Numbered from the stretch's first letter, positions 28,974 to 48,712 are shown. The stretch: DNA of 64,000 nucleotides from Byssovorax sp. (GCA_025362495.1 JANYGI010000218.1:1-64000); one strand, 5' to 3'. The notes: generated from the sequence alone by a model not told the origin. Made by a program: numbers and translations.

Positions 28974-29750
28974 TCAGGGCTTCGACTTATCGCCAATCAG
29001 CGCGCCGAAAAGCGCGCCCAGGGCTCCGCCGCGGAGATCGCCCACGAGGGCTGCGGCCTTTGCGGCGATCTCGCCTTCCACGACCTTCACCGTCGACTCG
29101 ACCTTCGTCACCACCGAGCTGGCCTCGTCGAGCGCGTGCATCGCCAGGCCCTCACCCCAGCGAATGCCGGTCTCCACCGCGTCGGCGCCGGCCCGGAGCG
29201 CCGCGCCGACCGCCACCGAGGCCGCCGCCGCGCTCGTCTCCAGCCTGGCCAAGGGGGCCAGGGGATCGGGCGGCGCGATATCCACCGTCGCGCCGCCGAC
29301 GAGCACTGTCGCGAGGCCATCGGCGATGATCGCGCCGCAGATCGTCGCGTCAGTCTGACGCGCGAGGCGCATGCCGTTGGCGAACACCGACGCGCTGCCC
29401 TTGCGGATGGGGTTGTCGTGGTGGTTCGCGCAGTCCACGCTGTGCACGCTCGTCAACGCAGCCGGGAACGAGGGCCCGCCGAGGAACGTATCGGGCGAGC
29501 CCTGACCGATGGCCCCATTGACCACGAGCGGAAAGACAGCGCTCGTGGCGATCGTCACGTGGCCTGTCTCTCGCGCCGTGGACACGCCGGCGCCGATCGT
29601 CGCCGCGAGGGCGCCGGCCGTGTTCGCCACGGCCGCGAGGGCCCCGAGGGCCACGCCGAGCAGCGCCTCGCTTTCCTTCTCGGCCACCTGCGCCGCGTGC
29701 GAGATGCGATCGCCGACGCGCGCCGCGGCGAGAGCGAGCGAGCCGCTCAC
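28974..29750 (-). CDS. prePAAR / PAAR-domain T6SS spike-tip protein with Gly-rich tail
   Basis: 258 residues from GTG 29750, overlapping the chaperone stop (GTGA). Near the N-terminus is AARVGDRISH, a match to the prePAAR motif AARxxDxxxH. A hydrophobic Ala/Gly segment (about 30-55) follows, then a PAAR core at about 78-155 (GQGSPDTFLGG, VDCANHHDNPIRKGSASVFA, DGLATVLVGG). The last 100 residues are Ala-rich helices ending GGALGALFGALIGDKSKP, a Gly-zipper-like segment. prePAAR effectors with membrane segments need an Eag chaperone, and one is encoded immediately upstream. There is no large toxin domain and no obvious immunity gene. It caps a VgrG spike, probably the one at 30218-33850. Confidence 0.85.
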   Translation of the reverse strand: MSGSLALAAARVGDRISHAAQVAEKESEALLGVALGALAAVANTAGALAATIGAGVSTARETGHVTIATSAVFPLVVNGAIGQGSPDTFLGGPSFPAALTSVHSVDCANHHDNPIRKGSASVFANGMRLARQTDATICGAIIADGLATVLVGGATVDIAPPDPLAPLARLETSAAAASVAVGAALRAGADAVETGIRWGEGLAMHALDEASSVVTKVESTVKVVEGEIAAKAAALVGDLRGGALGALFGALIGDKSKP

Positions 29751-30214
29751 CGTGCGACCTCTTCCGCGTCATCACCCGCTGACGCGAAAGGAAACCGCAC
29801 CGTGCCGAGGATGCGGTCGAAGAGCGGATCGGTCTGCGCCGCGTCGGCCTTCGGCGTCGTCGCGGTGAAGCAGTAGACCGAGCGCCTTCGCCCCTCGGCG
29901 ACCGCGAGGCGCTGCAGCAGCGGGCCCGCCGCGGCCTTCGATCCGAAGCGCAGCACGATGGCCGGCAGGCCGCCAAGCGTCGTGTCTTCGCGCCGCACCA
30001 GCTCGAAGCCGTCGAGTCGCTTCGCCAGCTCGGCGAGCTGCCGATCGGCGTAGTCGCCCAGCGTCTCCCGCTCGCCGAGGACGTCGCGCGTCATCACCAG
30101 GTTGGCGGAGGTGGCCTGTCCGTCCTTCGGCGGCGAGGCATAGGCCACCAGGGTCTTGTCCTCCCAGTGACGGGGGACATCGAAGCTCACGTCGTTCTGC
30201 TCGTGACGGGCCAT
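29747..30214 (-). CDS. DUF1795/DcrB-family (Eag-type) T6SS chaperone
   Basis: 155 residues, ATG 30214, three bases after the VgrG stop. Family features include the opening NDVSFDVPRHWEDKTLVAYA, the segment LVMTRDVLGERETLGDYADR, and a C-terminal strand pattern (YCFTATTPKADAAQTDPLF, ILGTVRFPF). Eag proteins of this fold bind the hydrophobic helices of prePAAR effectors and load them on VgrG. The gene order VgrG-Eag-prePAAR, with overlapping or touching ends, agrees with that role. Cytoplasmic; no signal peptide. Confidence 0.82.
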   Translation of the reverse strand: MARHEQNDVSFDVPRHWEDKTLVAYASPPKDGQATSANLVMTRDVLGERETLGDYADRQLAELAKRLDGFELVRREDTTLGGLPAIVLRFGSKAAAGPLLQRLAVAEGRRRSVYCFTATTPKADAAQTDPLFDRILGTVRFPFASAGDDAEEVAR

Positions 30215-30217
30215 GGC

Positions 30218-33200
30218 TCAGAGCACCGCCTTCTTGAGAAACTCACCGCCGGCTTCGCTGTCCCAGGGCCGCTCGTAGAGCACGTATCCGTGGTCGCGGA
30301 GCGCGCCCGCAAAGGCATCTCCCGACGAGAGGCCGTTCATCTGGTGGTCGACCACCCTGGCCGAGATGTCCGCCGGCGAGAGCGGCGTCGACGCCTGGGT
30401 GCGCATCACCATCAGCTGCCCTTCGCTGGGGCTCTGGAGGAACGTCGCGCCGGTGTTGCCGTTGACGGCGTTGGCGATCCCCTCGCCCCCGAAGCCGCCG
30501 GCCCGGGTGACGATCGCGCTCTGCGGCGAAGGTAGCGCAGGAGGCGTGGGCGCTCCGCCGCCGAACGCGCCCGAAAGCGCCGTGGAGCGTGCCTGTCGAC
30601 CGGCGGTGTCCGCGAGCGAGTGCACCGGCGATTTGAAGCCCGGGAGCGCGTTCCCCTGCCCCTTTGCGGTGTTGCCCGCATTGACGATCTTGTCGAGCGG
30701 ATTGCCCGTCTTCAGGGCCTGCGGCGCGGGATCGCCGGGGGGCGGGATCATCTTGGGCGAGGAGAGCTCCTTCACGGCGTCCTTGGTCTGCTGAACGGCG
30801 TCCTTGGCCTCGGCCTGCAGGCTCTTGCCGGCGTCCTTGGCCTCCTTCAGCGCGTCCTTGGCCTCCTGCTTGATCTCCTTGGCCTCGGACTTGAATTCGC
30901 TCTTGGTGGAGCTCCAGGCGTCCTTGGCCTCCTTCACGGTGTCCTTGACGTCCTGCTTGACCTCCTTCACGGCCTCCTTGACCTCGGTCTTGGCGGACTT
31001 GTAGGCGTCTTTGACCTCTTGCTTGGTCTCGTTGAAGGCCGTCTTCACGTCCTGCACCGCGCCCTTGATCTCGGCCTTGACCTCCTTCGGGAAGTTCTTG
31101 ATCTCGCCGAGGAGCTTCCGGGTATCGGCCTTGACGGTCTCGATCTCGTTCTTGACGGCAGCGACGGTGTCCTTGATCTGCTGTTTGGTCTGCTCGATCG
31201 CGTCCTTGATCTGGCCGACGGTCTGCTTGACCTGGTCCTTGACGCTCTGGATCGTGGCCTTGACGGCGTCGATCTCCGACTGGACCTTGTCGCGCACGGC
31301 GATGGCCATCTTGCGGAGATCGTCGAAGATGGCCTTGGCCTGGGCCTTCGCATCGGCGATGCGCTGCTTGATGCCGTCAATCACGGCGCGCGCCTGGGCC
31401 CGGATCTCCTCGATCCGCGCCTTGATCTTGTCGACGACGGCGCGGGCCTGGGCCTTGATCTCCTCGACCTTGTCCTTGACCGCCTGGATCTTGGCCTCGA
31501 CGGCGGCGCGGATCTGCTCGACTTTGGCCTTGAGCTCGGCGATGCGCGCGGCGGCCTCGGCCTTCACGGCCTCGAGCTTGGAGCGAAGAGAGTTGATGAG
31601 CGCGTAGGCCTCGGCGCGGGCGGCCTCGACGCGGGGGACGAGGTTCTCTTTCAGCGCCTCGAGCTTGCCCTTCACGGCGTCTTCCACCATCGCGATGCGG
31701 TCCTTGACCGCGCCCTCGATCTGCTCGACGCCCTGCTCGATCTTCTCGCGCGCGGTCTTGAGCTGCTCCTCGATGTACGCGGGCAGGACGATGGCGTCGG
31801 GCGCCTCGCCCGGGAGCTCGACCGGCGTCGACAGGAGCTGCGTTAGCTTCTCTTCTTCGGGCGTGAAAGGCAGGCTGAACGAGGTGATCCCGGTCTTGGC
31901 CTGCGCGAGATCGAGCACGCCGGGCGGCGAGGCCGAGGTCGAGTTCAGGTAGACGTTGGGCATGCCGTCGACGTGGACCTCGTTGCCCGAGAGGCTCATC
32001 AGCTCGCCGGCCGAGAGGCGAACTGAAGCCTTTCCATCGAAATAAATGTTCGGCCCGTCGAGCACGATCGAGGCCTCGCCCGTGGTGAGCACGATGCGCT
32101 TGTCGCTGGTGATCGCCACGCCGGTGCCGCTCGTGCCGATCTCGAGGTGGTACGCCTCGCCGACCGAGACCGTCTCGCTCGCGGCGACGGTGGAGCTGCG
32201 ATTGCCGCCGATCGAGAGCGTCTGATCCCGGGTGATGGTGCGCGACTCCGAGGCGCCTATCGCCGTCTCGATCGAGCCGCCGATCGTCACCGACTCGTCG
32301 TTGCGCACCAGGCGCTCGTGGTCGCGCTCGGCGCGCATGTAGACGCGCTCCTTGCCCTTGTCGTCGTCGAAGGTGATCTCGTTCCAGCCGCCGCCGCCGG
32401 GGGTGCTCGCGCTCTTCCAGGTGCTCTGCGCCTTCTGCTCCGGCAGCGAGGTCGGCGTGCGCGAGGCGCTGTTGTGGACGCGGCCCACGACGACGGGCTG
32501 ATCGGGATCGCCCTCAAAAAAGCCGACGAGGACCTCGTCGCCGACGCGCGGGAGGGCCTGCACGCCGAAGCCGCGGCCGGCCCACGCCTGGCTGACGCGG
32601 AGGAAGCACGAGCTCTGCTCGTCGCGCTTGCCCTCGCGGTCCCAGTGGAACTGCACCCGCACGCGGCCGTGCTCGTCGGTGTGGATCTCGCTGCCGGCCG
32701 GGCCGACGACGAGGGCGCTCTGCAGGCCGGGAATCGAGGGCTTCGGCGTCTTCAGGGCCGGTCGGTACGGCTCGTCGGCGAAGACGGCCTGACCGGTGAT
32801 CGTCCACTCGCCATCGCGTGTGCCCTCGATCGACTGGCGCACCGTGAGCAAGCGGCGCTTGTCGAGATCCATGCGCGGATGGCCGGTGATCGCGAACACG
32901 ATGCCGGGCGCGAGATCGAGCACGGTGGCCTTGTACGAGACCGCGCGGCGAGCGCGCCGGATCGACGCCAGCTTGCGCGCCGCGAGGGCCTTGCTCTCTT
33001 TCTCGTCGATGCGCGCCGAGGCGATCTCGGCCTCGACGAGGAAGGCGCCGGGCACGTAGTCGTAGACCTCGAGTTTGTCCTCGAGCGCGGAGAGCGTGCG
33101 CGCCTCGGCGATCAGCTCGAGATCGGGGCGCGATCGAAAGTCGTAGTCGCGGAGCGTGAGCCTCCCGGCGCGGACCTCCTGCGCGAGCTTGACCTGCGAG

Positions 33201-33850
33201 ATGATCTCTTTGCCAGGAGGTGGGTTGTTGCCGTTGAAGAACAGGATTGGACCGCCTGCGCGCGCGTCGTGCCGATCGAGATCGGTGCTAAAAACGAGCC
33301 TGGTTTCCGGCTCTTCCTTGCTGGTCTGCGAGAGATCGGGATCGCGGAACACGTAGGTGACGCCGGCCTCTTCGAGGATGCGGCTCAGGAACGCAAAGTC
33401 GGTCTCGGCGTACTGCACGCGGTACTCGAAGCGCGGGAACGACGACGCGTCGAGCTCGAGCACCGGCGTGATGTTCCACTCGGCCAGCACGACACCGGCG
33501 ATCTCCGGGAGCGTGAGGTGCTGGAAGACGCGGTTGTTCTTGCGCCGCGTCGCGCGCCAGAGGGCGGGCACGATCCGCAGGTAGTACGTGGACAGCCCGG
33601 CGGTCTCGGCCTCGACTTGCTCCATGTGCGCGATCACGCCCGTCCAGGCGCGCGCGGCGCCCTCGAGCGACGCGCCTAGCCGGAACGACGCGCCCAGACC
33701 GACGAAGGCGTCGAGGTCGAGATCGTCGTCCGGGGAAGCGGCGATGACGCCGATCTCGAAGAGGCCCGAGACGGGGTGCTCCACCGAGAAGCTGCGGACC
33801 GAGAGGGAGGTTTCTTTCGAGGCGAAGGAGAGCTCTAGGTTCTGGGCCAC
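30218..33850 (-). CDS. Extended VgrG with amphipathic-helix domain and unknown C-terminal domain
   Basis: 1210 residues from GTG 33850. The VgrG core occupies about 1-645: gp27-like N-terminus (VFQHLTLPEIAGVVLAEWNI, YRVQYAETDFAFLSRILEE), gp5 OB fold (GSEIHTDEHGRVRVQFHWDR, LPRVGDEVLVGFFEGDPDQP) and beta-prism repeats. Residues 691-1030 form an almost unbroken charged helical region with 18-residue repeats such as EEIRAQARAVIDGIKQRI, then KEVKQDVKDTVKEAKDA-like 11-mers. Residues 1031-1210 are a Pro/Gly-rich linker and a small domain ending YERPWDSEAGGEFLKKAVL, not recognised. An evolved VgrG with an unusual extension, first gene of a VgrG-Eag-prePAAR operon. Confidence 0.9.
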   Translation of the reverse strand: MAQNLELSFASKETSLSVRSFSVEHPVSGLFEIGVIAASPDDDLDLDAFVGLGASFRLGASLEGAARAWTGVIAHMEQVEAETAGLSTYYLRIVPALWRATRRKNNRVFQHLTLPEIAGVVLAEWNITPVLELDASSFPRFEYRVQYAETDFAFLSRILEEAGVTYVFRDPDLSQTSKEEPETRLVFSTDLDRHDARAGGPILFFNGNNPPPGKEIISQVKLAQEVRAGRLTLRDYDFRSRPDLELIAEARTLSALEDKLEVYDYVPGAFLVEAEIASARIDEKESKALAARKLASIRRARRAVSYKATVLDLAPGIVFAITGHPRMDLDKRRLLTVRQSIEGTRDGEWTITGQAVFADEPYRPALKTPKPSIPGLQSALVVGPAGSEIHTDEHGRVRVQFHWDREGKRDEQSSCFLRVSQAWAGRGFGVQALPRVGDEVLVGFFEGDPDQPVVVGRVHNSASRTPTSLPEQKAQSTWKSASTPGGGGWNEITFDDDKGKERVYMRAERDHERLVRNDESVTIGGSIETAIGASESRTITRDQTLSIGGNRSSTVAASETVSVGEAYHLEIGTSGTGVAITSDKRIVLTTGEASIVLDGPNIYFDGKASVRLSAGELMSLSGNEVHVDGMPNVYLNSTSASPPGVLDLAQAKTGITSFSLPFTPEEEKLTQLLSTPVELPGEAPDAIVLPAYIEEQLKTAREKIEQGVEQIEGAVKDRIAMVEDAVKGKLEALKENLVPRVEAARAEAYALINSLRSKLEAVKAEAAARIAELKAKVEQIRAAVEAKIQAVKDKVEEIKAQARAVVDKIKARIEEIRAQARAVIDGIKQRIADAKAQAKAIFDDLRKMAIAVRDKVQSEIDAVKATIQSVKDQVKQTVGQIKDAIEQTKQQIKDTVAAVKNEIETVKADTRKLLGEIKNFPKEVKAEIKGAVQDVKTAFNETKQEVKDAYKSAKTEVKEAVKEVKQDVKDTVKEAKDAWSSTKSEFKSEAKEIKQEAKDALKEAKDAGKSLQAEAKDAVQQTKDAVKELSSPKMIPPPGDPAPQALKTGNPLDKIVNAGNTAKGQGNALPGFKSPVHSLADTAGRQARSTALSGAFGGGAPTPPALPSPQSAIVTRAGGFGGEGIANAVNGNTGATFLQSPSEGQLMVMRTQASTPLSPADISARVVDHQMNGLSSGDAFAGALRDHGYVLYERPWDSEAGGEFLKKAVL
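30761..31780 (-). repeat. Coding repeat: 340-residue LEA/apolipoprotein-like amphipathic helix
   Basis: Encodes VgrG residues 691-1030. Lys, Glu, Asp, Ala and Val dominate; only two prolines occur (about 739 and 921). At least three consecutive units of about 18 residues are evident (EEIKAQARAVVDKIKARI, EEIRAQARAVIDGIKQRI, ADAKAQAKAIFDDL), then shorter EVKDAYKSAKT-like units. At DNA level it shows as repeated CTTGG-CCT and TCCTTG tracts on the plus strand. Several open plus-strand frames here are artefacts of the repeat. Confidence 0.8.
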
Positions 33851-33932: not shown

Positions 33933-36431
33933 ATGGAGATCGTCGCTCTCTCCCCCGTGCATGCCACCACGCTCACCTGGCGACGCGACGCCAAGACCTG
34001 GGCGCTGACGGTCGTCGTCAAGGCGACGTTCGACCTCACGCCCGCCGAGATGCGTCTCTCGCAGACGCAGGATCCGCTGCTCGATCAGGATCGTCGCTGG
34101 GAAGAAGAGCCGGGGCGCAGCCTTCATTCACCGTCGGATCTCGTGCCGTTCAAGGCGCGCGCCGACGTGATGCTCGTGGGCCACGCGTATGCGCCGAACG
34201 GGAAATCGGTGCGCTCGCTCCTCGCGCGCCTCGTCGTCGGCGGCGTCGACAAATCGATCGCGGTGCTCGGCGATCGCGCCGCACAGGGCCGCGAGCCCGC
34301 GCCGTTCACGATCATGGCCCTGCGCTACGAGCGCGCCGCGGGTGGGCTCGGGCAACACAACCCCTCGGGGATCGCCGCGAGCGAGACGCGTTTACCCAAC
34401 CTCGAGCCGGCGATCCGCGCCGGCCGCGACAGCGCGCGTCAGGCCGACGAGGGCGCGCCGATCGCGGGCTTCGGGCCGATCGCGCCCGACTGGCCGCAAC
34501 GACGCGGTCGCCTCCAGGGCGGCGCGTCGACGTGGACGCCGAACGATCCGCTCGACGACAGCGATCCTCTGTTCTTCAACGCCGCTCCAGCGGATCAGCA
34601 GCTCGCGGCGCTCCGCGACGATCAGCCGCTCTTGCTCGAGAACCTCCACCCCGATCACGCGCGCCTCTCGACGCGTCTCCCGGGCCTGCGGCCTCAGGCC
34701 TTCGTCGAACGCCCGCACGCCGCGCCGCACGAGCTCGAGATGCGCGCCGACGCGCTGTGGATCGACACCGATCGCGGGCGCTGCACGGTGACGTGGCGAG
34801 GGCATTTTCCGCTCGCGCAGCGCGACGAGCCGGGCCGCGTTTTCGTGGCGATGACCGGCGCGCGCCAGCAGCTCACGTGGGACGACATCAAGGGCCTCGA
34901 GCGCGCGATCGGCGCGGATCAAACCCCGCCCGCGCCGCGCAAGATCCCGAACCTCGAGGCCTTCGATCCCGACGACGACGACGGCGACGACACGATGACG
35001 ATCGCGCGCAAGCTGCCGATGCCGGCGCTGCCGCCGCGGCGGGTGCCCGCGCCGAAGCCGACGCTGGTCGGGACGCCGCCGCCGCCCGCGCCGATCGCCG
35101 CCGCGCTGCCGCCGACGACGCCGCCTCCGGCGATGCCCACGAGCCCGCCCGCCGCGCCGCCGCCGCTGCCGCCTCCCCTCTCGCCCGAGCGCCTGCGCAC
35201 GCTGCTCGCGTCTCGCGAGCTCGCCCCCGGGTACGATCTCGCCGAGCCCACCAGCACCGACTTCTACACCGTCGGCGAGCACACGCCGATCCTCGACGCG
35301 TCGCCCGCGTGGCTCGCGCTCCACAGCGTGCCGACGCCCGCGGTGCCCAGCGTCACGCCGACGGCGATCGTCCCCGCGCCGACGCCGACGCCGAGCGCGC
35401 CGCCCGTCGTCGCGGCGCCGCCGATCATCGTGGCCCCGCCGCCGCAGATGGCGCCTCTCGCGGCGACGGTACCCTCCGCGGTCGCCACGCTCACCGGCGA
35501 CGCGCGGAGCCCGTGGGCCGCCGCCGGCGCCACGCCGCGACCGACAGCACCGCTCGCCCCGGCGCCGGCGTCGCCGCCGAGCAAGCCTGTCGCGCCGAGC
35601 AAGGCACCGTCGCGGACTGCCACGCTCACGGGCACCTCGAAGCCGCCCGCCGACGTGCTCGATCTGCTGTGGTTCGATCCCGACGCGCTGCCGCGGATCC
35701 GCGCCCGCTTCAGCGCCCTGATCGACGAGCTGGAGTTCGAGGCCCTCGATCCGCGCCACGATCTACCCGTCGACGATCCCAAGGCCTCGCGCGATCGTCA
35801 TCATGCCTTCGGCGTGATGACCCAGGCGCCGATGACCGACGCCGCCGGCATTTCGCGGGCGATGCTCGACGCCATCAGCGACAAGGGCCGCTTCACGCCC
35901 CCGGTCGTGGTGCTGAGCGGCGAGCTGCGGTTCCCCTTCGACGAGGTCGAGCATTTGAAGGCAGCCGCGGCTGCCGCAAAACCCCTGGCGAAGGATGACA
36001 AGCGGCTGAGCGATCTGATCGAGACGGTGAACGAGCTCGCCGGAACCCCGCTGCTCCAGGGCTCCCCCGGCGCGATTGACAGCCTGCTCAAGGATCTGTC
36101 GAGCGCGGTGTCGCAGAGCAAGAGGCCTCTGCCGGTGAAGTTCCTCGACGCCCACCTCGAGCGCGTGCTGCTGGAGCAGAGGCGCTATCAGAAGCGGACG
36201 GTGTTCGGCGCCCCGATGCTGCGCGGGCTGTTCACGCCGGCGGGATCGAGCGCGGCGCTGCCGGCGTACCTGCCCGAGTCGGTGGCCGACAAGCTGCCTC
36301 TCGTGGTGCAGATGAAGGTGCGGCTCATCGCCGAGGCGAGCTCGAGCCAGGATCAGTACGAGAGCCACCCGCAGGCGCTGCGGGTGGTGGCGCTCGGAAG
36401 GGCGATGGCGGTGGACGGCTGGCGGCGGTGA
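33933..36431 (+). CDS. DUF2169-domain T6SS adaptor with Pro-rich linker and extra C-terminal domain
   Basis: 832 residues. The N-terminal about 330 match DUF2169: WALTVVVKATFDLTP, SDLVPFKARADVMLVGHAYA, LGQHNPSGIA and PIAGFGPIAPDWPQR. Members sit beside VgrG/PAAR effector genes and help load effectors. Residues about 370-590 are a Pro/Ala linker (PPAAPPPLPPPLSP). The C-terminal about 220 residues form a separate helical domain (VLDLLWFDPDALPRIRARF, RRYQKRTVFGAPMLRGLF) that I do not recognise. First gene of the plus-strand module; VgrG follows after 31 nt. It probably binds the cargo or spike of this module. Confidence 0.8.
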   Translation: MEIVALSPVHATTLTWRRDAKTWALTVVVKATFDLTPAEMRLSQTQDPLLDQDRRWEEEPGRSLHSPSDLVPFKARADVMLVGHAYAPNGKSVRSLLARLVVGGVDKSIAVLGDRAAQGREPAPFTIMALRYERAAGGLGQHNPSGIAASETRLPNLEPAIRAGRDSARQADEGAPIAGFGPIAPDWPQRRGRLQGGASTWTPNDPLDDSDPLFFNAAPADQQLAALRDDQPLLLENLHPDHARLSTRLPGLRPQAFVERPHAAPHELEMRADALWIDTDRGRCTVTWRGHFPLAQRDEPGRVFVAMTGARQQLTWDDIKGLERAIGADQTPPAPRKIPNLEAFDPDDDDGDDTMTIARKLPMPALPPRRVPAPKPTLVGTPPPPAPIAAALPPTTPPPAMPTSPPAAPPPLPPPLSPERLRTLLASRELAPGYDLAEPTSTDFYTVGEHTPILDASPAWLALHSVPTPAVPSVTPTAIVPAPTPTPSAPPVVAAPPIIVAPPPQMAPLAATVPSAVATLTGDARSPWAAAGATPRPTAPLAPAPASPPSKPVAPSKAPSRTATLTGTSKPPADVLDLLWFDPDALPRIRARFSALIDELEFEALDPRHDLPVDDPKASRDRHHAFGVMTQAPMTDAAGISRAMLDAISDKGRFTPPVVVLSGELRFPFDEVEHLKAAAAAAKPLAKDDKRLSDLIETVNELAGTPLLQGSPGAIDSLLKDLSSAVSQSKRPLPVKFLDAHLERVLLEQRRYQKRTVFGAPMLRGLFTPAGSSAALPAYLPESVADKLPLVVQMKVRLIAEASSSQDQYESHPQALRVVALGRAMAVDGWRR

Positions 36432-36462
36432 GCGACGGGGCGTTCGGAGGATTGGCACTCAC

Positions 36463-39006
36463 ATGATGCAGGTCGATTTCGAGTCCGAGACAACGGGGCA
36501 GCGCGCGTGTCGCACGCTATCCGGCACAGAAAAGCTCGGCGAGCCCTCCAGCTTCGATGTCGAGATCGTCATCACGGATCAGATCGATCCCGCCGCGCTC
36601 CTTGGTTCGGCGGGCGCGGTTCACTTCGTCAATGCGCATGGCGAGCGGCGGGCTCACGGACTCGTCACGCAGGTCACACAGGTCGCCACGGCACGCCGAG
36701 GGCCGGGGCGAATCTATCGGATCACATTGAAGTCCGCCGTTCACCTGCTGTCGCTGCGTCGTCGCTCGCGCGTCTTCCAGCACCTGACGGTGGCGGCGAT
36801 CGTCAAGCGCGTCGTCGAAGACGGGGGCTATCCCGCGGATCGCATCGCCATCCGCGCGGCGGGCGATCATCCCGAGCGCGCCTACGTCGTGCAATACGAC
36901 GAGACGGACCTCGACTTCGTGAGGCGTCTCTGCGAGGAAGACGGGCTCTTCTATCGGTTCCAGGCTGACGGAGACGCCGACACGTTCATTCTCGAGGACG
37001 CCGAATCATCCCCTCCTGCGGCACTCGAGAGCGGGTTACCCTTGGCGGACGCCGCGCACCTGACCGCCCCACGGCCGACGGCGTTCGCGTGCGAAATCAC
37101 GCGCGAGCGTCGACCAGGCAAGGCGACGCTGCGCGACTACGATCCTCAGAATCCCGCTCTCGTGCTCGAGAACGTGGCCGCCGGCGGCGGCGACGCGGAG
37201 TCCGCGATGGAAGTCTACGCGGCGCCGGGGCGCTTCAAGACGCCGCGAGAGGGCGAAGCGCGCGCCCGAGTGCACCTGGAGAGCCTCCGGGCCGAGGCGA
37301 ACTTGGTGCGCTTCTCTACGACCGGAGTGGCGCTGGCGCCCGGACTGTCAGTCACGCTCGAGCCCACCGCCGACGTCGCCGGGACCGCGCGGCCGGAAGG
37401 TACTCATCTCATTGTCGCCGTCGAGCACGCGTGGCGGAGCGAGGAGCCTCGCGCGCCACGGATCACCGCCATCGCCGCAGAGGTGCCCTATCGCCTGGAG
37501 CGGCGCACGCCCCGCCCGCGGATACACGGGGTGCATCCCGCCGTCGTGACCGGAGCGACGGGCGAGGAGATTCACACGGACGACGCCGCACACGTCAGGG
37601 TCCGCTTCTTCTGGGATCGCGAAGGTCCGGGCGACGATAAAAGCAGCCTCCCGGTGCGGGTCCTCCAGAACAACCTACCAGGATCGATGCTCATTCCCCG
37701 CGTCGGCTGGGAGGTCGTCGTGGCCTTCGAAGACGGCGACCCCGATCGGCCTTACGTGCTAGGACGAACCTACAACGCCAAGGAGCCTCCGCCTTACTCG
37801 CTGCCTGCCAACAAGACGATCACCAGCCTGGCGACGATCAGCTCGCCGGGCGGCGCGCGGTCTAACTCGGTTCACTTCGACGACGCCAAGGGCCGACAGC
37901 ATCTCGCCTGGGCGGCAGGGTTCGGCAAGACGACCACAGTCGCTAACAACATGCTCACGCAGACCGTCGGGTTCGAGCAGACCAAGGTCGGGGGCGCCCA
38001 GATCTGGAAAATCGGCGGCGATGAGAGCATCTCGGTAACCAACGCTTCGATTCACGATCTCGGGTCCCAGAGCGCGCACGTCGGCGGCACGCAGGACATT
38101 GGCGTCAAGGGCAACAGCTATGTCAAGGTCGGCTCGGAGAAGGTGGCGATCGGTGGGGCGTTGATCGAAGTGGTCGGCTCGCCGGGCCAGGTCACCGGCG
38201 CGCTCGAGAAAGAAGGTGCCCTGTTCGTCGCTGGCGAGCTGCTCGGGGACAAGGTGCCGCTGCTCTACAACATTTACAAGGCCGCCGAGGACGTGCACGA
38301 CGTCTATACGCACTCCGGCGGCAACAAGGCCACGGCCGGGAAGGCGGCGCTCCAGCACCTGCTCTCGCTCGCCGAATCGCACGTTCCTGGCCTCGACGCC
38401 GGCATCGCCGCCGCCGGCGCGTCGAAGAAGGCGCCGTGGGACGATGACGACGTGCAGAAGGCCCGCGAGGCAGCTGCTGCTGGCGCAGGCGCCAGCGGCG
38501 CGGCGGCGCAGGGCGCGGGGAGCGGCGGTGGCGCCGGAAATCGGGAGACCGTGGTGCACGGCGCGATGATGGAGACAATCGACGGCGTGCTCTCCGTGGC
38601 GGCAGCGATTGGCGTGAAGAGCACGACGGCGGGCGGCGCGGTGCTCATCGTCGGCGGGAGCAACATCACGCGTGCGACCAAGGTCAGTCATCTTTACATG
38701 GGCGTGGCCAGCGAGAGCGCAGCATCTATCGCGGTCGAAGCGGGGATCATCGGGCGCAACGTGACGGGGGCGATGACGACCGAAATTGGCGGGGCGCTGG
38801 GGATCACGGCCGGAGCAGCCTACGAGCTCAAGGCGGGCTTGCTGGCGCTGAAGATCGGAGGGGCCCTGTCGGTGACCGGTGGAACGGTGACGTTCCTGTG
38901 CGGTGGGTCGGAGCTCGTAGCTTCGCCGGGCGGGGTGCTGATCAAATCTGCGTCGGTGACCGTGACGAAGATCGTGAAGACGTCCGGCAAGCTGGCGGTG
39001 AGCTGA
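36463..39006 (+). CDS. VgrG spike protein with insertion in the beta-prism region
   Basis: 847 residues; GGAGG upstream, with ATG at 36463 or 36466. VgrG core: VFQHLTVAAIVKRVVEDGGY, YVVQYDETDLDFVRRLCEED, GEEIHTDDAAHVRVRFFWDR and IPRVGWEVVVAFEDGDPDRP. The C-terminal part has Val/Gly/Thr beta-repeats (GGSNITRATKVSHLYMG, GIIGRNVTGAMTTEIGG). Between about 580 and 690 is a helical/Gly-Ala insertion (LLGDKVPLLYNIYKAAEDVH, GAGASGAAAQGAGSGGGAG) with no recognised fold. It ends 5 nt before the Rhs gene, so it is the likely carrier of the Rhs effector. Confidence 0.9.
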   Translation: MMQVDFESETTGQRACRTLSGTEKLGEPSSFDVEIVITDQIDPAALLGSAGAVHFVNAHGERRAHGLVTQVTQVATARRGPGRIYRITLKSAVHLLSLRRRSRVFQHLTVAAIVKRVVEDGGYPADRIAIRAAGDHPERAYVVQYDETDLDFVRRLCEEDGLFYRFQADGDADTFILEDAESSPPAALESGLPLADAAHLTAPRPTAFACEITRERRPGKATLRDYDPQNPALVLENVAAGGGDAESAMEVYAAPGRFKTPREGEARARVHLESLRAEANLVRFSTTGVALAPGLSVTLEPTADVAGTARPEGTHLIVAVEHAWRSEEPRAPRITAIAAEVPYRLERRTPRPRIHGVHPAVVTGATGEEIHTDDAAHVRVRFFWDREGPGDDKSSLPVRVLQNNLPGSMLIPRVGWEVVVAFEDGDPDRPYVLGRTYNAKEPPPYSLPANKTITSLATISSPGGARSNSVHFDDAKGRQHLAWAAGFGKTTTVANNMLTQTVGFEQTKVGGAQIWKIGGDESISVTNASIHDLGSQSAHVGGTQDIGVKGNSYVKVGSEKVAIGGALIEVVGSPGQVTGALEKEGALFVAGELLGDKVPLLYNIYKAAEDVHDVYTHSGGNKATAGKAALQHLLSLAESHVPGLDAGIAAAGASKKAPWDDDDVQKAREAAAAGAGASGAAAQGAGSGGGAGNRETVVHGAMMETIDGVLSVAAAIGVKSTTAGGAVLIVGGSNITRATKVSHLYMGVASESAASIAVEAGIIGRNVTGAMTTEIGGALGITAGAAYELKAGLLALKIGGALSVTGGTVTFLCGGSELVASPGGVLIKSASVTVTKIVKTSGKLAVS

Positions 39007-39011
39007 ATCCA

Positions 39012-42000
39012 ATGTCGAGTAGCGGTGGCAAAGAAATAGCGACCACGAAGAGCAACCACGGGGCGCTCGGAACACCCGCGGTGAATAACAATCCCCCTAC
39101 GCCGCCGGCAGGCCCCGCGCCGGTGCCGTACCTGTACGCCTCGCAATCGTCCTCTGCGAAATTCACCGTCGGCGACGTCGAGGTCGCCGCCAGTCCCGTG
39201 CTCGTCAAAGGCAGCACGATGACGATGGTCGATCCTGGCAATCAGCCCGCGAAGATCACCGTCGGCGATATCGTGACGAGCACAGTTTGCGGCGTCTCGG
39301 TGATGCAGGAGGGTACTGGTGGCACCACCGCGGGAGGCAAACCAATCTGCGTCACCACCAACCTTCTCACCATGAACCAGATGACGAAGGAGGGGGCTGT
39401 CTCTCAGGTCAACACCCCTCTCCTGGGTGGCGCTGACTTCGTCACGGCCTACAATGCAGGCGCCGGCGGCGCAGCGGGCGGGAAACAGCAAAACACCGCC
39501 GTTCCGCCCGCTCAGGCCAACGAGCCCGGCGGCGCGTCGGCTCCGCCCGCCCCTGCCGCAAGCACGGAGGGCGAGCCTGTCGATGTCGCGACCGGCGCCG
39601 TCGTCGACAGCGCGGTCGACTTCGCGCTTCCCGGCCTGATTCCACTCGTCTGGAGTCGGCAGTACTCCTCCCTGCGCAACCAGCTCTCGGGCGCGCTCGG
39701 CAAAGGCGGCTGGGTTCACGCGTTCGAACAATGGGTGAGCCGGGAAGAAAAATGCCTGTCGCTCCGGGAGGAGGACGGGCGCGACGTCTGGTTTACCATA
39801 CCCGCTCCCGGAGCGATCACGTTTCACCGTCGCGAGCGGCTCGAGCTGACCGTCGACAAACAAGGAGGCTATCAAGTCTACAGCACAGCGACGCGGCTCA
39901 GGCGGCGGTTCTCGACGCTCGCGTCGGACGGCCACGCGGTGCTGCGGCGAATCGAGGATGCTTGGGGCAACGCGATCCAGCTGGAATACGAGGGCAACCG
40001 GCTCGCGCGGCTACTCGACACAGCAGGACGCGAGGTGATCCTTCGCTGGGGAAAGCACGGCTGGGTGGAGCGGGTCGAGATCTGCGCCGCGGGACATCTT
40101 CGGCAATGGGTCGATCTCGCCTATCACCCCGAAGGCGAGCTCGCACGGGTGACCGACGCGCTGGGCTTCGCCCAAGCTTACACCTACGACGGTTACCACC
40201 GACTGCTCGAAACCACGTTCAAGAATGGCTCTCGTTTCTGGCACCGTTACGATCCCGACAGCGGATGGTGCGTGAAGACGTGGGGCGAAAATGGCCTCCA
40301 CAACGTCGAGTTGCATCCTGACTTTCGCAAACGAACCACGCTGATCAGCGGGACAGAAGAGCCCAAGATCTACACCTGGAACGACCAAGGCGTCGTTGTC
40401 CGGCAGGCGACGCACGACGGCGCCTTCGTCCGCGAGAAGACCTTCGACGACGATCTCAACCTGATCGCCGAGACCAACGCGGCCGGCGAGACGACGCGCC
40501 TCGAGTACGACGCTCGAGGAAACAAGGTCAGGGCGATCGACGCGGCGGCGAACGAGACATTGTGGGAGTACGTCGACGATCGCCCCGTGCAGCGAATCGC
40601 CCCCGGCGGGCTCGTCACGACCTACACGCACGGCGCGCGCGGCGAGCTCACGGGCGTCACGTATCCTTCCGGGCAAAGCTATTCGTTGTCTTATGATGGG
40701 CGGGGACGTCTCCGTGGCCTGTACGGGCCTGACGGGCAGATTGTCGGCTATGCTCATGATGAACAGCATAACCTCGTCCTCGAGACCAATGCGCTCGGCG
40801 CGTGCACGACTTTTTCCTATGACTTGCTTGGCCGCCCGATGGTCCAAACGGACGCCATCGGTCGCGTGACGCGGATCGAGCACGACCATCTGGGTCAGCC
40901 TACCACCATTACTCGCCCCGATGGAACGCGCGTTCACGCGGAGTACGACGCAATGGGCGCGGTCTCGCGAGTCATCGACGCTTTCGGCCGAGAAACGATC
41001 CTGGAGTACGGCGGCACCGGCGTATTGAAACGCCTGGTGCGGAGCGACGGACACGCGTTTCGCTTCGAGCACGACACCAGCGAGCGGCTGCGCAAGATCA
41101 TCAACCCCCGCTTCGAAGAGTACGAGCTCGGATACGATCGCGCGGGCCGCGTCGTCCGGGAAAAGACCTTTGACGGGCGAGAGCTAAGGTATCGTTACGA
41201 CAAAGCAGAAAGACTATGCCGCATCGACTATCCAGATGACACGTACCGGGTGTTTCAGTACAATCCGATAGGCGACGTAATTGCGGAGCAGTCGCCGCAC
41301 GGTGGCATCACCTACAAGCGCAACGAGCGCGGCTGGCTGCTCGAAGCGATTCTCGACGAGTTTCATGGCAAGGTAGTCAATCGCTTTGAGCGCGACGCGC
41401 TCGGGCGAGTGATCGCCGAGCACCAGGGCGAGAGGACCGTTCGCCATGAGCTCGATGCGCGCGGGAGGCGGAGCGCGCGCACGCTGCACGAGGGGGCGAC
41501 GACACGCTACGCCTACGATGTATTCGGCGCTGCGAGCCACGTGGAGCACGAGGGACACCGCATCACACTCTCACGCGACCAGCTCGGGCGAGAGACGAAG
41601 CGCCACGCCGGCAGGGCCGGAGTGGAGAGCTCGTCCAGCTACGACGCGATGGATCGATTGACGGAGCAGCGGGTGAGCATGCCAGGCACCGCGAGTGATG
41701 GACTGCGCGCCACACTCATGGAGCGGCTGTACGCGTACGATGCGCTCGGTCGCGTGCAGCAAGTCGACGACGGGCACTGGGGCGCCACCGTGTACGAGTA
41801 CGACCGGATAGGCCAGCTCGTCGAGGCACGAAGGGGCAACCTGCGCGAAGCGTTCGAGTACGACCTTACCGGATCCCTTCAAAATGTGCTCGCGAGCCAT
41901 GATGAGATCGGTCACGTCGAGCCGTGGAGGATCGGGACTGGCAATCTTCTTCAGGAGGCCAACGGGACACGCTATGAGAACGACAAGCGCGGCCGACGGG

Positions 42001-43175
42001 TGAAGAAGATCGCGCGCGGGCAAGGCGGGGACGCGGAGGAGACACGCTATCTGTGGGACTGCCGTGATCGGCTGCGAGAGGTGCGCCTGCCCGGCGGCGG
42101 TCGGCTCCTGTTCACCTACGACGCGTTCTCGCGACGCGTGCGCAAAGAGGTCATCCCCGCAGCTCGGCTGGAGCCCGCACGGCTGGTCGCCGTGGCGACC
42201 AGCACGGCCGATACTGCCACGGAGGCCGCATTGCCTTCGCGGCGCGTGGTGGAGTTCGTCTGGGATGGCAACGCGCTCGCCGCCGCCGTGGAAGACGGGC
42301 GAGAGTGCGTGTTCGTGCACGAGCCGGGGACGCTCGCGCCCATGCTCCAGGCGGAGGGAGGTGAGGTGTTCACCGTCGTGAATGACCATCTCGGGATGCC
42401 GAAGGCGCTCTTGAGCGGGAGCGGGCAGGTAGCCTGGACCGCAGCGCACTCCGCGTGGGGTCGTGTCGTCGGGACCTTTCGCGAGCCCGGCGCGTCAAGC
42501 GTGAGCGGCGTGGAGAGCCCGTTTCGATTACTGGGGCAATACGAGGACAAAGAGACGGGGCTTTACTACACGCGGTTCCGGTACTTCGACACCGAGGTCG
42601 GGAGGTGGTGTAGTCCGGATCCACTAGGAATTCGCGGGGGAGCAAACCTACTCGGGTTCAATGGCAGTCCGGCGACTCACGTGGATCCACTGGGGCTATG
42701 CGCCCAGACTGGCAGGTTTCCGCCGGGATCGAAGGTCATCGGAGGGCGTCCCCCCAGCACCGTGCTCTATGAAACGCCAGAGGGGACAGTAAAAATGCGT
42801 TTCCGCGCCGAGGACGCAATAATGTGCGGCGAAGTGAAGACCCCGGTCGGCACCTCCACGGACACTGGCGTATCTGAACGAGAAGACGGACTTCCGTTCG
42901 TGGAGATCGGCCGTCACCGCACCATCGCAGTAGCAGCCTACGGGGACACGATCGACCCGTCCAACGGTGGGGTTCCAAGCGCGCCTGGCTATTTGGACTA
43001 CGACAATGATACAGTAAAAAATGACCAGGGAACGACAAATCGGGACCGCTTCCCCCCCGAGTTTGACGTTCAGGCAAAGACTTTGACACTGAAAGATCGC
43101 GGGACCGCCGTCTACACGGACAAGGCCACCGCCGACAGGCTCGAGCAAGAGAGGCAGAACAGATGTCGACCCTAG
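39012..43175 (+). CDS. T6SS Rhs effector: PAAR-like N-domain, Rhs shell, variable C-terminal toxin
   Basis: 1387 residues from ATG 39012. N-terminal about 15-130 is PAAR-like/DUF4150 (PVLVKGSTMTMVDPGNQPAK, MNQMTKEGAVS). About 190-1180 are Rhs/YD repeats (YTYDGYHRLLETTF, LEYDARGNKVRAIDAA). The shell ends at 1185-1229 with YYTRFRYFDTEVGRW, SPDPLG and VDPLGL, the conserved autoprocessing region. The tip (1230-1387; DNA 42699-43175) is the toxin: IGRHRTIAVAAYGDTIDPSN and GYLDYDND recall a ParB/Srx-like nuclease fold, but only weakly. GC falls to about 50-57 % there, unlike the roughly 70 % of nearby genes. The stop overlaps the putative immunity gene by 13 nt. Confidence 0.92.
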   Translation: MSSSGGKEIATTKSNHGALGTPAVNNNPPTPPAGPAPVPYLYASQSSSAKFTVGDVEVAASPVLVKGSTMTMVDPGNQPAKITVGDIVTSTVCGVSVMQEGTGGTTAGGKPICVTTNLLTMNQMTKEGAVSQVNTPLLGGADFVTAYNAGAGGAAGGKQQNTAVPPAQANEPGGASAPPAPAASTEGEPVDVATGAVVDSAVDFALPGLIPLVWSRQYSSLRNQLSGALGKGGWVHAFEQWVSREEKCLSLREEDGRDVWFTIPAPGAITFHRRERLELTVDKQGGYQVYSTATRLRRRFSTLASDGHAVLRRIEDAWGNAIQLEYEGNRLARLLDTAGREVILRWGKHGWVERVEICAAGHLRQWVDLAYHPEGELARVTDALGFAQAYTYDGYHRLLETTFKNGSRFWHRYDPDSGWCVKTWGENGLHNVELHPDFRKRTTLISGTEEPKIYTWNDQGVVVRQATHDGAFVREKTFDDDLNLIAETNAAGETTRLEYDARGNKVRAIDAAANETLWEYVDDRPVQRIAPGGLVTTYTHGARGELTGVTYPSGQSYSLSYDGRGRLRGLYGPDGQIVGYAHDEQHNLVLETNALGACTTFSYDLLGRPMVQTDAIGRVTRIEHDHLGQPTTITRPDGTRVHAEYDAMGAVSRVIDAFGRETILEYGGTGVLKRLVRSDGHAFRFEHDTSERLRKIINPRFEEYELGYDRAGRVVREKTFDGRELRYRYDKAERLCRIDYPDDTYRVFQYNPIGDVIAEQSPHGGITYKRNERGWLLEAILDEFHGKVVNRFERDALGRVIAEHQGERTVRHELDARGRRSARTLHEGATTRYAYDVFGAASHVEHEGHRITLSRDQLGRETKRHAGRAGVESSSSYDAMDRLTEQRVSMPGTASDGLRATLMERLYAYDALGRVQQVDDGHWGATVYEYDRIGQLVEARRGNLREAFEYDLTGSLQNVLASHDEIGHVEPWRIGTGNLLQEANGTRYENDKRGRRVKKIARGQGGDAEETRYLWDCRDRLREVRLPGGGRLLFTYDAFSRRVRKEVIPAARLEPARLVAVATSTADTATEAALPSRRVVEFVWDGNALAAAVEDGRECVFVHEPGTLAPMLQAEGGEVFTVVNDHLGMPKALLSGSGQVAWTAAHSAWGRVVGTFREPGASSVSGVESPFRLLGQYEDKETGLYYTRFRYFDTEVGRWCSPDPLGIRGGANLLGFNGSPATHVDPLGLCAQTGRFPPGSKVIGGRPPSTVLYETPEGTVKMRFRAEDAIMCGEVKTPVGTSTDTGVSEREDGLPFVEIGRHRTIAVAAYGDTIDPSNGGVPSAPGYLDYDNDTVKNDQGTTNRDRFPPEFDVQAKTLTLKDRGTAVYTDKATADRLEQERQNRCRP

Positions 43176-43825
43176 ACGAGCTGATGTCCCTCTACGAAGA
43201 CGCGAAGCGCGCCGGCACGCACCACATGGCGCAAGTCTACCGCGTAAAATGTGGCCTGATGACCGGAGACTTCAACGCGCCTCCCTTTGCAGACGAAACC
43301 CCCCTCGGCATCAACCCAAGACTTGAAAACCCACCCGTCGGGACGGTGGCGTTCCTCGCTTCGATCAACCAGATGAGCGGCAGCCCGTTCCTGCGGCGCG
43401 AAAGGGTCGGAGGATGGGACAGAACTCCGTGCGCACACAGCGACTCCATCTTTCTTTTGCGCGTCGGATTGAATCATGTCGGAACCACTCCCAGATATGG
43501 TGATTACGACTGCGGTGCGTTGCCTTGGGCCATCGAGGAGCGCGAGTGGGTGATCAGTCAAGGTGGGCAGACAGCGCTTGTGCGCGAGGATGGGTCGGAG
43601 TATGGGAGCGTCATCGTTCCCGTCGAGCATCCGCGCTTCACTGGAGTTCCCGACCCGCGTTACGACGAGAGAGCCGTCGCCTTTGGCAATACCTGGAAGT
43701 TTCTCCAAAGACTCCAGGAAGGCGATGCGCCCTATGAGCTGCGCGAAGGGGATGTCCTTCTGACCTGCTACTACGCACTCGTCTATGGCTTGGCCACCTA
43801 CCCCGGGGCGACTCCACGTCGATGA
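43163..43825 (+). CDS. Putative immunity protein to the Rhs toxin tip
   Basis: 220 residues, ATG 43163, overlapping the Rhs stop by 13 nt. Immunity genes are expected directly after the toxin tip. It is a soluble, probably mixed alpha/beta protein: YRVKCGLMTGDFNAPPFADE, FLLRVGLNHVGTTPRYGD, REWVISQGGQTALVREDG and FGNTWKFLQRLQEGDAPYEL. No family recognised. Codon use is less G/C-biased than neighbours, matching the toxin tip. The assignment rests on position; a neutralising function is inferred. Confidence 0.7.
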   Translation: MSTLDELMSLYEDAKRAGTHHMAQVYRVKCGLMTGDFNAPPFADETPLGINPRLENPPVGTVAFLASINQMSGSPFLRRERVGGWDRTPCAHSDSIFLLRVGLNHVGTTPRYGDYDCGALPWAIEEREWVISQGGQTALVREDGSEYGSVIVPVEHPRFTGVPDPRYDERAVAFGNTWKFLQRLQEGDAPYELREGDVLLTCYYALVYGLATYPGATPRR

Positions 43826-47403: not shown

Positions 47404-48712
47404 CGACATACGCTGCGACGCGGTGCCTCTCGCTCGCGTGGCATTTATTCATGCAGGGCTCGCGGACGGTCTGTCGCTGAACGAGCTTCTCGATCACCTC
47501 GATGTCGACGCTGCGACGTGGGGCCGTGCCCAGGCGTCGTTTGCGCGGCTCTTCGCGCGGCGAGCGCGCGAGGGAAACGATTTCGCGCTGCGCGTCGACG
47601 CGCTCTCCGACGTGGCGCGCTCGGCGTGGGAAAGGAAGCTCCCGCCGCTGGATCAGGAGCTGGCCGCGTTCTTCGATTTCGAGCGCCACTACGCGGCGAG
47701 CGTGGATGGGCTCGCGTTCCTGCGAGAGAGGAGAATGCGGCCGTCGGATCTCAACCGCCTGGAGCGCCTCTGGAACGAACGTTTCGCGGCCGATTCAGCG
47801 CTGCGCGAGCAGGCGCTCACGCGGATGGCCGAGGAGCCGGGCCCCTGCCCTGACGTGCAGCCCGAGCCCCCGCGCCTCGTTCAGGCGAGAGCAGCACGCC
47901 TGTCCAGGGATGCGACCGAGCAAGCGAAGCTCCCGTTGCCGTTTATCGACGGTGAGGCGAACCTCGCGCCACCTCCGCTGTCGACACCGCTGCCGGCACG
48001 GAAGAAGACCGGGCTCGACGGGACGCGCGATATCGGCGACCTCCGCTCGATCCTCGCCTCGTTGCCGTTCGCGCGCTCGGTGGCGCCGCAGCCGTCTGCG
48101 GCGCCACCGACTCGAGAGCCCATTGCAACCCCGGTGGAGGCGGCCGCCGTCATCGCTCCCGCGGTGGTCCAGCCGGTCGTCGCCGCGGTCGCGCCTTCGG
48201 TTCTCCCCGTCACGCCGCCGGCCTACATCGCACCTCAAGGGCCGGTGCGCGATTTGCGGGGAACGAGCATGGCTGTCGACGTCCCCGCCCGCGCGGCGCT
48301 CCCGTTCGCGCAGGGGAGCTCCACGCTCCGCTCCGCGGGCGACGCGCCGGCCCCGCCCGCCGAGCCACCTCGCCCCAGGGCGCACTCCGATCTGCGAGAG
48401 ACGTCGGCGGTGTTCTTTGCGCCTCGGAGCCAGGCAATGCCGTTCTCCACGACGGCGCCGGCCCCGCCCCGCGCCGACACCTCGACGCTGACCGTGGAGC
48501 AATATGCTTCGCTGTGCGTCGATCTCGCCGTGGATCCAGGGCGCGCTGCGGAGACGTTGCGGCGCTATCACCTCACGCCGGAGCAGAAGCAGGCGATCGA
48601 CGCCGAGTGGCAGGCGCGCTTCGCTCGTGACGCGACCTCCTGGCAAGCCTGGGACCGCGCATACAAGACGTATCACGCGTGGATCGTCGGACAGAGGGGC
48701 AAGGGGCCATGA
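47396..48712 (+). CDS. Helical-repeat/Pro-rich protein of T6SS spike cluster, unknown family
   Basis: 438 residues from ATG 47396, overlapping the DUF2169 gene by 8 nt and the next VgrG by ATGA. A Trp-containing helical unit appears about three times: NELLDHLDVDAATWGRAQAS, DLNRLERLWNERFAADSAL and TPEQKQAIDAEWQARFARD. Between the second and third copy lies about 230 residues of Pro/Ala/Val linker. The repeats resemble a small protein-binding module; placement between adaptor and VgrG genes suggests a bridging function. No known domain or catalytic motif was recognised. Confidence 0.6.
   Translation: MTDDIRCDAVPLARVAFIHAGLADGLSLNELLDHLDVDAATWGRAQASFARLFARRAREGNDFALRVDALSDVARSAWERKLPPLDQELAAFFDFERHYAASVDGLAFLRERRMRPSDLNRLERLWNERFAADSALREQALTRMAEEPGPCPDVQPEPPRLVQARAARLSRDATEQAKLPLPFIDGEANLAPPPLSTPLPARKKTGLDGTRDIGDLRSILASLPFARSVAPQPSAAPPTREPIATPVEAAAVIAPAVVQPVVAAVAPSVLPVTPPAYIAPQGPVRDLRGTSMAVDVPARAALPFAQGSSTLRSAGDAPAPPAEPPRPRAHSDLRETSAVFFAPRSQAMPFSTTAPAPPRADTSTLTVEQYASLCVDLAVDPGRAAETLRRYHLTPEQKQAIDAEWQARFARDATSWQAWDRAYKTYHAWIVGQRGKGP

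What the first reader, a model, noticed from the sequence alone, without database searches (positions are those of the whole stretch)
30218..33850. VgrG carrying a 340-residue LEA/apolipoprotein-like helix and an unknown C-terminal domain
After a normal VgrG core, residues 691-1030 are an almost proline-free Lys/Glu/Ala amphipathic helix built of 18-residue then 11-residue-like repeats, followed by a 180-residue unclassified domain. Known evolved VgrGs carry enzymatic or actin-binding tails; a membrane-active or tether-like helix of this length is unusual. It could insert in membranes, bridge to the PAAR tip, or be the toxic part itself. Seen: sequence and gene order. Inferred: role.
Basis: partly seen in the sequence, partly recalled or inferred. 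Interest (0 to 1): 0.75.

Follow-up and report, generated by a model that had tools for sequence, protein, structure and literature searches.

The report
Helix-tailed VgrG on an unarmed spike
A soil bacterium's molecular syringe has a tip protein with a 340-residue striped helix and a small conserved end domain; because the same end domain also ends related tips that carry their poison elsewhere, it is probably a docking part and the helix a stalk, though a membrane-active helix is not excluded.

Summary
A 1210-residue VgrG lies on the minus strand at 30218-33850. Residues 691-1030 are strictly periodic amphipathic helix (peak 99.75 degrees; 0 of 2000 shuffles as strong), then a linker and a conserved ~100-residue domain (CTD). 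The tail is conserved: 18 other genomes of one family (Minicystis, Polyangium, unnamed Polyangiaceae) carry it, one copy each, always followed by a DcrB/Eag-type chaperone gene, in 13 also by a PAAR gene. The CTD also ends seven sister VgrGs without the helix; these precede a related chaperone and prePAAR proteins with strong hydrophobic segments and long C-terminal extensions (Ntox46 in three of four scanned). So the CTD is most likely a docking module, not the toxin. In helix cassettes the PAAR partner lacks toxin and most hydrophobic segments, or is missing, and no immunity gene recurs. The distal, LEA-like 110 residues sit where relatives have Gly/Ala/Pro linkers, with Lys on one flank and Asp/Glu on the other, which fits a parallel homotrimer better than a membrane helix. 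Best reading: stalk plus dock on an unarmed spike (0.5). Main rival: the helix is a membrane-active payload that replaced the toxin (0.25).

The parts
30218..33850 (-). VgrG gene, 1210 aa, with helical tail and C-terminal domain
31931..33850 (-). VgrG core (residues 1-640)
   Evidence: TIGR03361 3e-130, Phage_GPD, Gp5_trimer_C
31091..31780 (-). Proximal amphipathic helix (residues 691-920), 18-residue register; its start aligns with the 190-205-residue helical region of the other members of the clade
30755..31090 (-). Distal LEA-like helix (residues 921-1032), 11-residue register, Lys on one flank and Asp/Glu on the other; lies where relatives have low-complexity linkers
30521..30754 (-). Low-complexity linker (residues 1033-1110)
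30221..30520 (-). Conserved C-terminal domain, CTD (residues 1111-1210)
   Evidence: conserved in 18 other genomes; homologous to the C-terminus of the armed sister VgrGs; AlphaFold2 model
29747..30214 (-). DcrB/DUF1795 (Eag-type) chaperone gene, 155 aa
   Evidence: PF08786 7e-21; tree
28974..29750 (-). PAAR gene, 258 aa, prePAAR-like start, no toxin domain found, weak hydrophobic segments
   Evidence: PF05488 5e-10
33933..36431 (+). DUF2169 gene, divergent neighbour; similar genes lie beside 8 other helix loci and 7 armed loci; may serve the next cassette instead
   Evidence: PF09937 2e-68

Best explanation
The protein is the spike (VgrG) of a conserved, single-copy, unarmed type VI cassette of Polyangiaceae: VgrG + DcrB/Eag-type chaperone + toxin-free PAAR. 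Its C-terminal ~100 residues are a docking domain that works with the dedicated chaperone and/or the PAAR tip. The helix between spike and dock is a stalk: since VgrG is a trimer, three tails would run side by side, the distal half pairing Lys flank with Asp/Glu flank in a straight parallel bundle (up to about 51 nm if 340 residues were one extended helix at 0.15 nm each). Shown here: architecture, conservation, homology of the CTD between armed and unarmed cassettes, lack of toxin and weak hydrophobic segments in the unarmed PAARs, periodicity and charge pattern. Inferred: docking, trimeric stalk, and that the cassette carries non-covalent cargo or serves a structural role.
For: CTD conserved in 18 other genomes, always beside the chaperone gene. 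CTD homologous to the C-terminus of seven armed sister VgrGs (hhalign 96%, E 2e-9; six of seven single sequences 3e-9 to 6e-8; 33 other own-genome VgrGs no better than 0.8) whose PAARs carry prePAAR_I and, in three of four scanned, Ntox46. Helix-class PAARs are short and less hydrophobic or absent in five genomes; no recurrent immunity gene. Distal helix replaced by linkers in relatives. Charge flanks 21:0 and 0:19, same polarity in Minicystis and Polyangium. Chaperone tree: helix class 97/85, with sisters 100/99; VgrG core tree: helix class 95/95.
Against: No interaction was tested; AlphaFold2 gave the helix only pLDDT about 50-63 with no packing. One chaperone relative (L204) sits beside a VgrG without the CTD. 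Repeats share descent, so the charge counts are not independent. Why a cell would keep a spike without a toxin is unexplained.
Confidence: 0.5

Rival explanations
1. The amphipathic helix is the payload: an apolipoprotein- or phasin-like segment that coats or disturbs the target membrane after injection and took over from the PAAR-borne toxin, which was then lost.
For: Helix present and PAAR toxin absent coincide in all helix cassettes seen, the reverse in the seven sisters. Proximal half has Lys/Arg on both flanks; three or four 18-mers reach a lipid-affinity factor near 1. In Polyangium the PAAR partner also has an apolipoprotein/phasin-like tail.
Against: Trees make this one evolutionary event, so the coincidence is weak. 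No 18-mer exceeds 1.16; hydrophobic face is mostly Val/Ile/Ala; distal half has charge on opposite flanks. No immunity gene recurs.
Confidence: 0.25
2. The helix is only a variable, solubilising linker (LEA-like, largely disordered in solution) without a specific role beyond keeping the CTD away from the spike.
For: Sequence identity is lower in the helix (44%) than in core (66%) and CTD (61%) between window and Minicystis; length varies from about 190 to 436 residues; AlphaFold2 pLDDT 50-63.
Against: Periodicity and charge polarity persist through that divergence; the start of the helix is conserved across the whole class.
Confidence: 0.13
3. The C-terminal domain is itself a toxin.
For: Several of the best viral fold matches are phage minor capsid proteins (TM about 0.5, best E 3.5e-3), a group in which some carry C-terminal toxins; a C-terminal position is typical of toxins.
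Against: Same domain in cassettes that already have a toxin on PAAR; conserved across genera instead of polymorphic; no recurrent immunity gene; no profile match; which part of the phage proteins matched is not known.
Confidence: 0.06

Closest known systems
VgrGs with non-toxic C-terminal extensions that recruit effectors (e.g. EAEC VgrG with DUF2345 and TTR domains, cited in PMC13373197)
   Same: VgrG core followed by an extension that is probably not a toxin
   Different: No DUF2345/TTR here by profile; the extension is a 340-residue helix plus a domain without a Pfam family
VgrG-Eag-prePAAR effector cassettes (PMC7773334)
   Same: VgrG, DUF1795/DcrB gene and PAAR gene side by side; the armed sisters have the prePAAR_I profile
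   Different: In the helix class the PAAR protein has no toxin found, weak hydrophobic segments and no prePAAR_I hit, or is missing
Apolipoprotein, phasin and LEA group 3 amphipathic helices
   Same: Long 11- and 18-residue periodic Ala/Lys/Glu helix
   Different: Fused to VgrG; Pfam Apolipoprotein score below cut-off; distal half has Lys and Asp/Glu on opposite flanks
DUF2169 (TvpA) spike accessory proteins (PMC13373197, PMC11883445)
   Same: A DUF2169 gene lies beside this and many related cassettes
   Different: Here it is divergent and may serve the neighbouring Rhs/Tox-PAAR-like cassette instead

Membership tests
VgrG / TssI | gp27/gp5-like core with OB domain and trimerisation domain | tested here: met
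   TIGR03361 435 bits against a cut-off of 186; Phage_GPD, Phage_base_V, Gp5_trimer_C
Evolved VgrG with toxic C-terminal domain | C-terminal extension with a recognisable toxin domain | tested here: inconclusive
   No Pfam, NCBIfam or PHROGs family for the CTD; toxicity not testable here
Evolved VgrG with toxic C-terminal domain | cognate immunity gene beside it | tested here: not met
   No small recurrent gene in the helix cassettes; the next genes differ between genera or are DUF2169
Eag-type (DUF1795/DcrB) chaperone, gene 29747-30214 | PF08786 above cut-off, gene beside VgrG/PAAR | tested here: met
   75 bits against 27.2; binding of a client not tested
prePAAR effector, gene 28974-29750 | PAAR domain | tested here: met
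   PF05488 39.9 bits against 27
prePAAR effector, gene 28974-29750 | strong N-terminal transmembrane segments and C-terminal toxin | tested here: not met
   Hydrophobicity maximum 1.8 over 5 windows against 2.2-3.0 over 24-42 in the sisters; C-terminal part 75 aa without a family. A prePAAR-like motif AARVGDRISH is present
Apolipoprotein A1/A4/E | Pfam PF01442 above its curated cut-off | tested here: not met
   55.4 bits against 90
Apolipoprotein-like membrane helix (works-like) | positive residues on both flanks of a lipid-binding hydrophobic face | tested here: inconclusive
   Proximal half partly, distal half no; lipid binding not tested
Parallel homotrimeric helix bundle (works-like) | complementary charge flanks and trimeric assembly | tested here: inconclusive
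   Charge flanks fit in the distal half; oligomerisation not tested
Phage minor capsid C-terminal domain | same fold as the C-terminal domain of these proteins | tested here: inconclusive
   Foldseek prob up to 1.00, TMq about 0.5, best E 3.5e-3; matched part of the phage proteins unknown

The most novel reading that the evidence does not exclude
A type VI spike that swapped a PAAR-borne toxin for a giant amphipathic helix on its VgrG trimer, which engages the target membrane (or, in Polyangium, pairs with a helix of opposite charge polarity on PAAR) and is handled by a former transmembrane-segment chaperone.
Probability: 0.2. Interest if true: 0.8.

Novelty: new variant of a known kind. Interest (0 to 1): 0.5.

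Why it matters
It defines a conserved spike class of Polyangiaceae with no recognisable toxin, and a C-terminal domain without detectable relatives in Pfam, PHROGs or the PDB that is shared by armed and unarmed cassettes. The paired cassettes give a natural test of what an Eag-type chaperone does when its transmembrane client is weak or gone, and whether a spike can act without a covalent toxin. My full-text searches found no paper that describes such a VgrG tail (open-licence library only).

Tried and rejected
CTD against plasmids and phages: no match. Phylum-wide profile search (379 genomes): hits only in the same family. The one scan of genome contigs found ten loci; named organisms are Minicystis and Polyangium, the rest metagenome assemblies; its patterns were strict, so distant relatives could be missed. 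PDB fold search with the CTD gave nothing convincing: Foldseek E at best 0.06, VIA Z at best 4.7, mostly carbohydrate kinases; this does not show a new fold. PDB sequence searches: helix hits only marginally TRIM3, apolipoprotein A-I and SHERP; CTD nothing significant. The CTD-as-toxin idea was set aside because of the armed sister cassettes. A VgrG-PAAR 'zipper' of opposite charge polarity is seen only at Polyangium loci, where PAAR has a long helix, so it is not the main explanation. An order-wide search with the C132 VgrG tail found only itself; the sisters were found through the chaperone.

Full report
What is there. The gene at 30218-33850 is on the minus strand and codes for a 1210-residue VgrG. 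Profiles place the core without doubt, and the coding frame is clear through the helix (GC3 0.96). Residues 691-1030 are Lys/Glu/Ala-rich with two prolines. Their hydrophobic periodicity peaks at 99.75 degrees per residue, about four times stronger than the best of 2000 shuffles. An 18-residue register runs to about residue 924 and an 11-residue one after it. The rest, 1031-1210, is a low-complexity linker and a conserved C-terminal domain (CTD) of about 100 residues.

The cassette. Directly downstream lie a DcrB (DUF1795, Eag-type) gene and a PAAR gene; these two overlap by four bases. The PAAR protein starts with a prePAAR-like motif but has no toxin domain that Pfam knows. Upstream, divergent, is a DUF2169 gene.

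Relatives. A search of 184 genomes of the order with residues 1031-1210 found matches in 20, the own included. One of these, G070, is weak with stops in the frame and was not pursued, which leaves 18 firm relatives, all in one family. In the GTDB scan the named ones are Minicystis rosea and Polyangium species; others are Polyangiaceae, Myxococcales or Deltaproteobacteria metagenome assemblies. Each of the 18 shows one such C-terminus with the DcrB gene directly after it; in three the contig ends before the VgrG core. The genomes carry between 9 and 71 VgrG hub matches, and all have the TssC sheath gene. A phylum-wide profile search found nothing outside the family.

Two subclasses. In the window, Minicystis and Polyangium the helix is about 340, 326 and 436 residues. 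In the other genera it is about 190-205 residues, followed by low-complexity linkers. The start of the helix aligns between the subclasses (hhalign probability 68%, E 5e-5; reversed control 1%), and a PK[DE] motif occurs near residue 921 of the window protein and near the end of the short version, though not in Minicystis. So the distal, LEA-like helix of the window sits where relatives have a flexible linker. Window and Minicystis are 44% identical over the helix, 66% in the core and 61% in the CTD, but the periodicity stays. The VgrG core tree recovers the two subclasses (100/98 and 100/99).

Armed sisters. A search with the DcrB protein led to further cassettes. In seven of them, one on contig C132 of the own genome, the VgrG has no amphipathic helix, the chaperone is a relative, and the PAAR protein has a prePAAR start, strong hydrophobic stretches and a long C-terminal extension. 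Of four scanned, all have the prePAAR_I profile and three have Ntox46. Their VgrG C-termini are homologous to the CTD: profile-profile probability 96%, E 2e-9; six of seven single sequences at 3e-9 to 6e-8, the seventh (L207) only 0.09; 33 other VgrG C-termini of the own genome scored no better than 0.8. These E-values are for small comparisons, not a database. The chaperone tree puts the helix cassettes in one clade (97/85) inside a clade with two sisters (100/99). The VgrG core tree agrees (helix class 95/95; sisters plus two others 98/96; all together 94/96).

What differs. PAAR proteins of helix cassettes have N-terminal hydrophobicity maxima of 0.6-2.0 and C-terminal parts of 68-185 aa; the sisters have 2.2-3.0 and, in the four where it could be measured, 328-358 aa. 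In the five genomes of genus g45 the cassette has no PAAR gene. No small gene that could be an immunity gene recurs downstream of helix cassettes. Because the CTD is shared with cassettes that carry their toxin elsewhere, it is most likely a docking part. That it docks on the chaperone or PAAR is inference from gene order and trees.

The helix. In the distal half all Lys/Arg counted lie on one flank of the hydrophobic stripe (21:0) and all Asp/Glu on the other (0:19); Minicystis (14:1 and 1:12) and Polyangium (17:0 and 1:15) have the same polarity. Parallel identical helices would bring opposite charges together, and VgrG proteins are trimers (established knowledge; not tested here). Lipid-binding class A helices have positive charge on both flanks (established knowledge); the proximal half comes nearer to that. 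The lipid-affinity factor is 0.05-1.16 for the 18-residue windows. AlphaFold2 makes the region helical at pLDDT about 50-63 without packing, from only eight sequences, which decides little. The repeats share descent, so the charged positions are not independent observations. In Polyangium the PAAR partner has its own long amphipathic tail with the opposite charge polarity, which would suit antiparallel pairing with the VgrG helix; the window's PAAR has no such tail.

The CTD model. AlphaFold2 gives a compact b-a-b-b-a-a-b domain (10-residue blocks at pLDDT 78-90 over residues 11-90 of the model). There is no convincing PDB match. Among viral models several of the best matches are phage minor capsid proteins at TM about 0.5, a lead only.

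Judgement. The best explanation is a stalk (helix) plus dock (CTD) on an unarmed spike, about 0.5. A membrane-active helix that replaced the toxin is the main rival, about 0.25: helix presence and toxin absence coincide, but the trees count this as one event. Known Eag chaperones protect transmembrane segments of PAAR effectors (PMC7773334), and known VgrG extensions recruit effectors (PMC13373197); no paper in the open-licence library describes this tail. It is a new variant of a known kind.

Noticed in passing
window 33933-43825 (+): A second T6SS cassette: DUF2169, VgrG (847 aa), Tox-PAAR-like/Rhs protein (1387 aa) and a 220-aa protein without a Pfam family that could be its immunity protein.
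   Followed up: no
window 48679-53091 (+): Two more VgrG genes in tandem; the own genome has 39 VgrG hub matches and Minicystis 71, a striking number.
   Followed up: partly
L021 4453-7155 and 7873-10734 (own genome, contig C132): Two recently duplicated VgrGs (branches 0.08 and 0.12): one ends in the CTD, the other in what looks like a lipase tail (by eye, not tested) with a 221-aa gene next to it.
   Followed up: partly
L063, L065, L066, L067 PAAR genes: Polyangium PAAR partners carry their own long amphipathic tail (weak apolipoprotein, phasin and perilipin hits) with charge polarity opposite to the VgrG helix.
   Followed up: partly
L204 1398-3527 (-): A PAAR protein with a C-terminal methyltransferase-like domain (Methyltransf_11 2e-14), an unusual candidate payload.
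   Followed up: no
CTD, residues 1106-1210 (model m8eb1b4ff1389): Moderate fold similarity (TM about 0.5) to several phage minor capsid proteins.
   Followed up: partly
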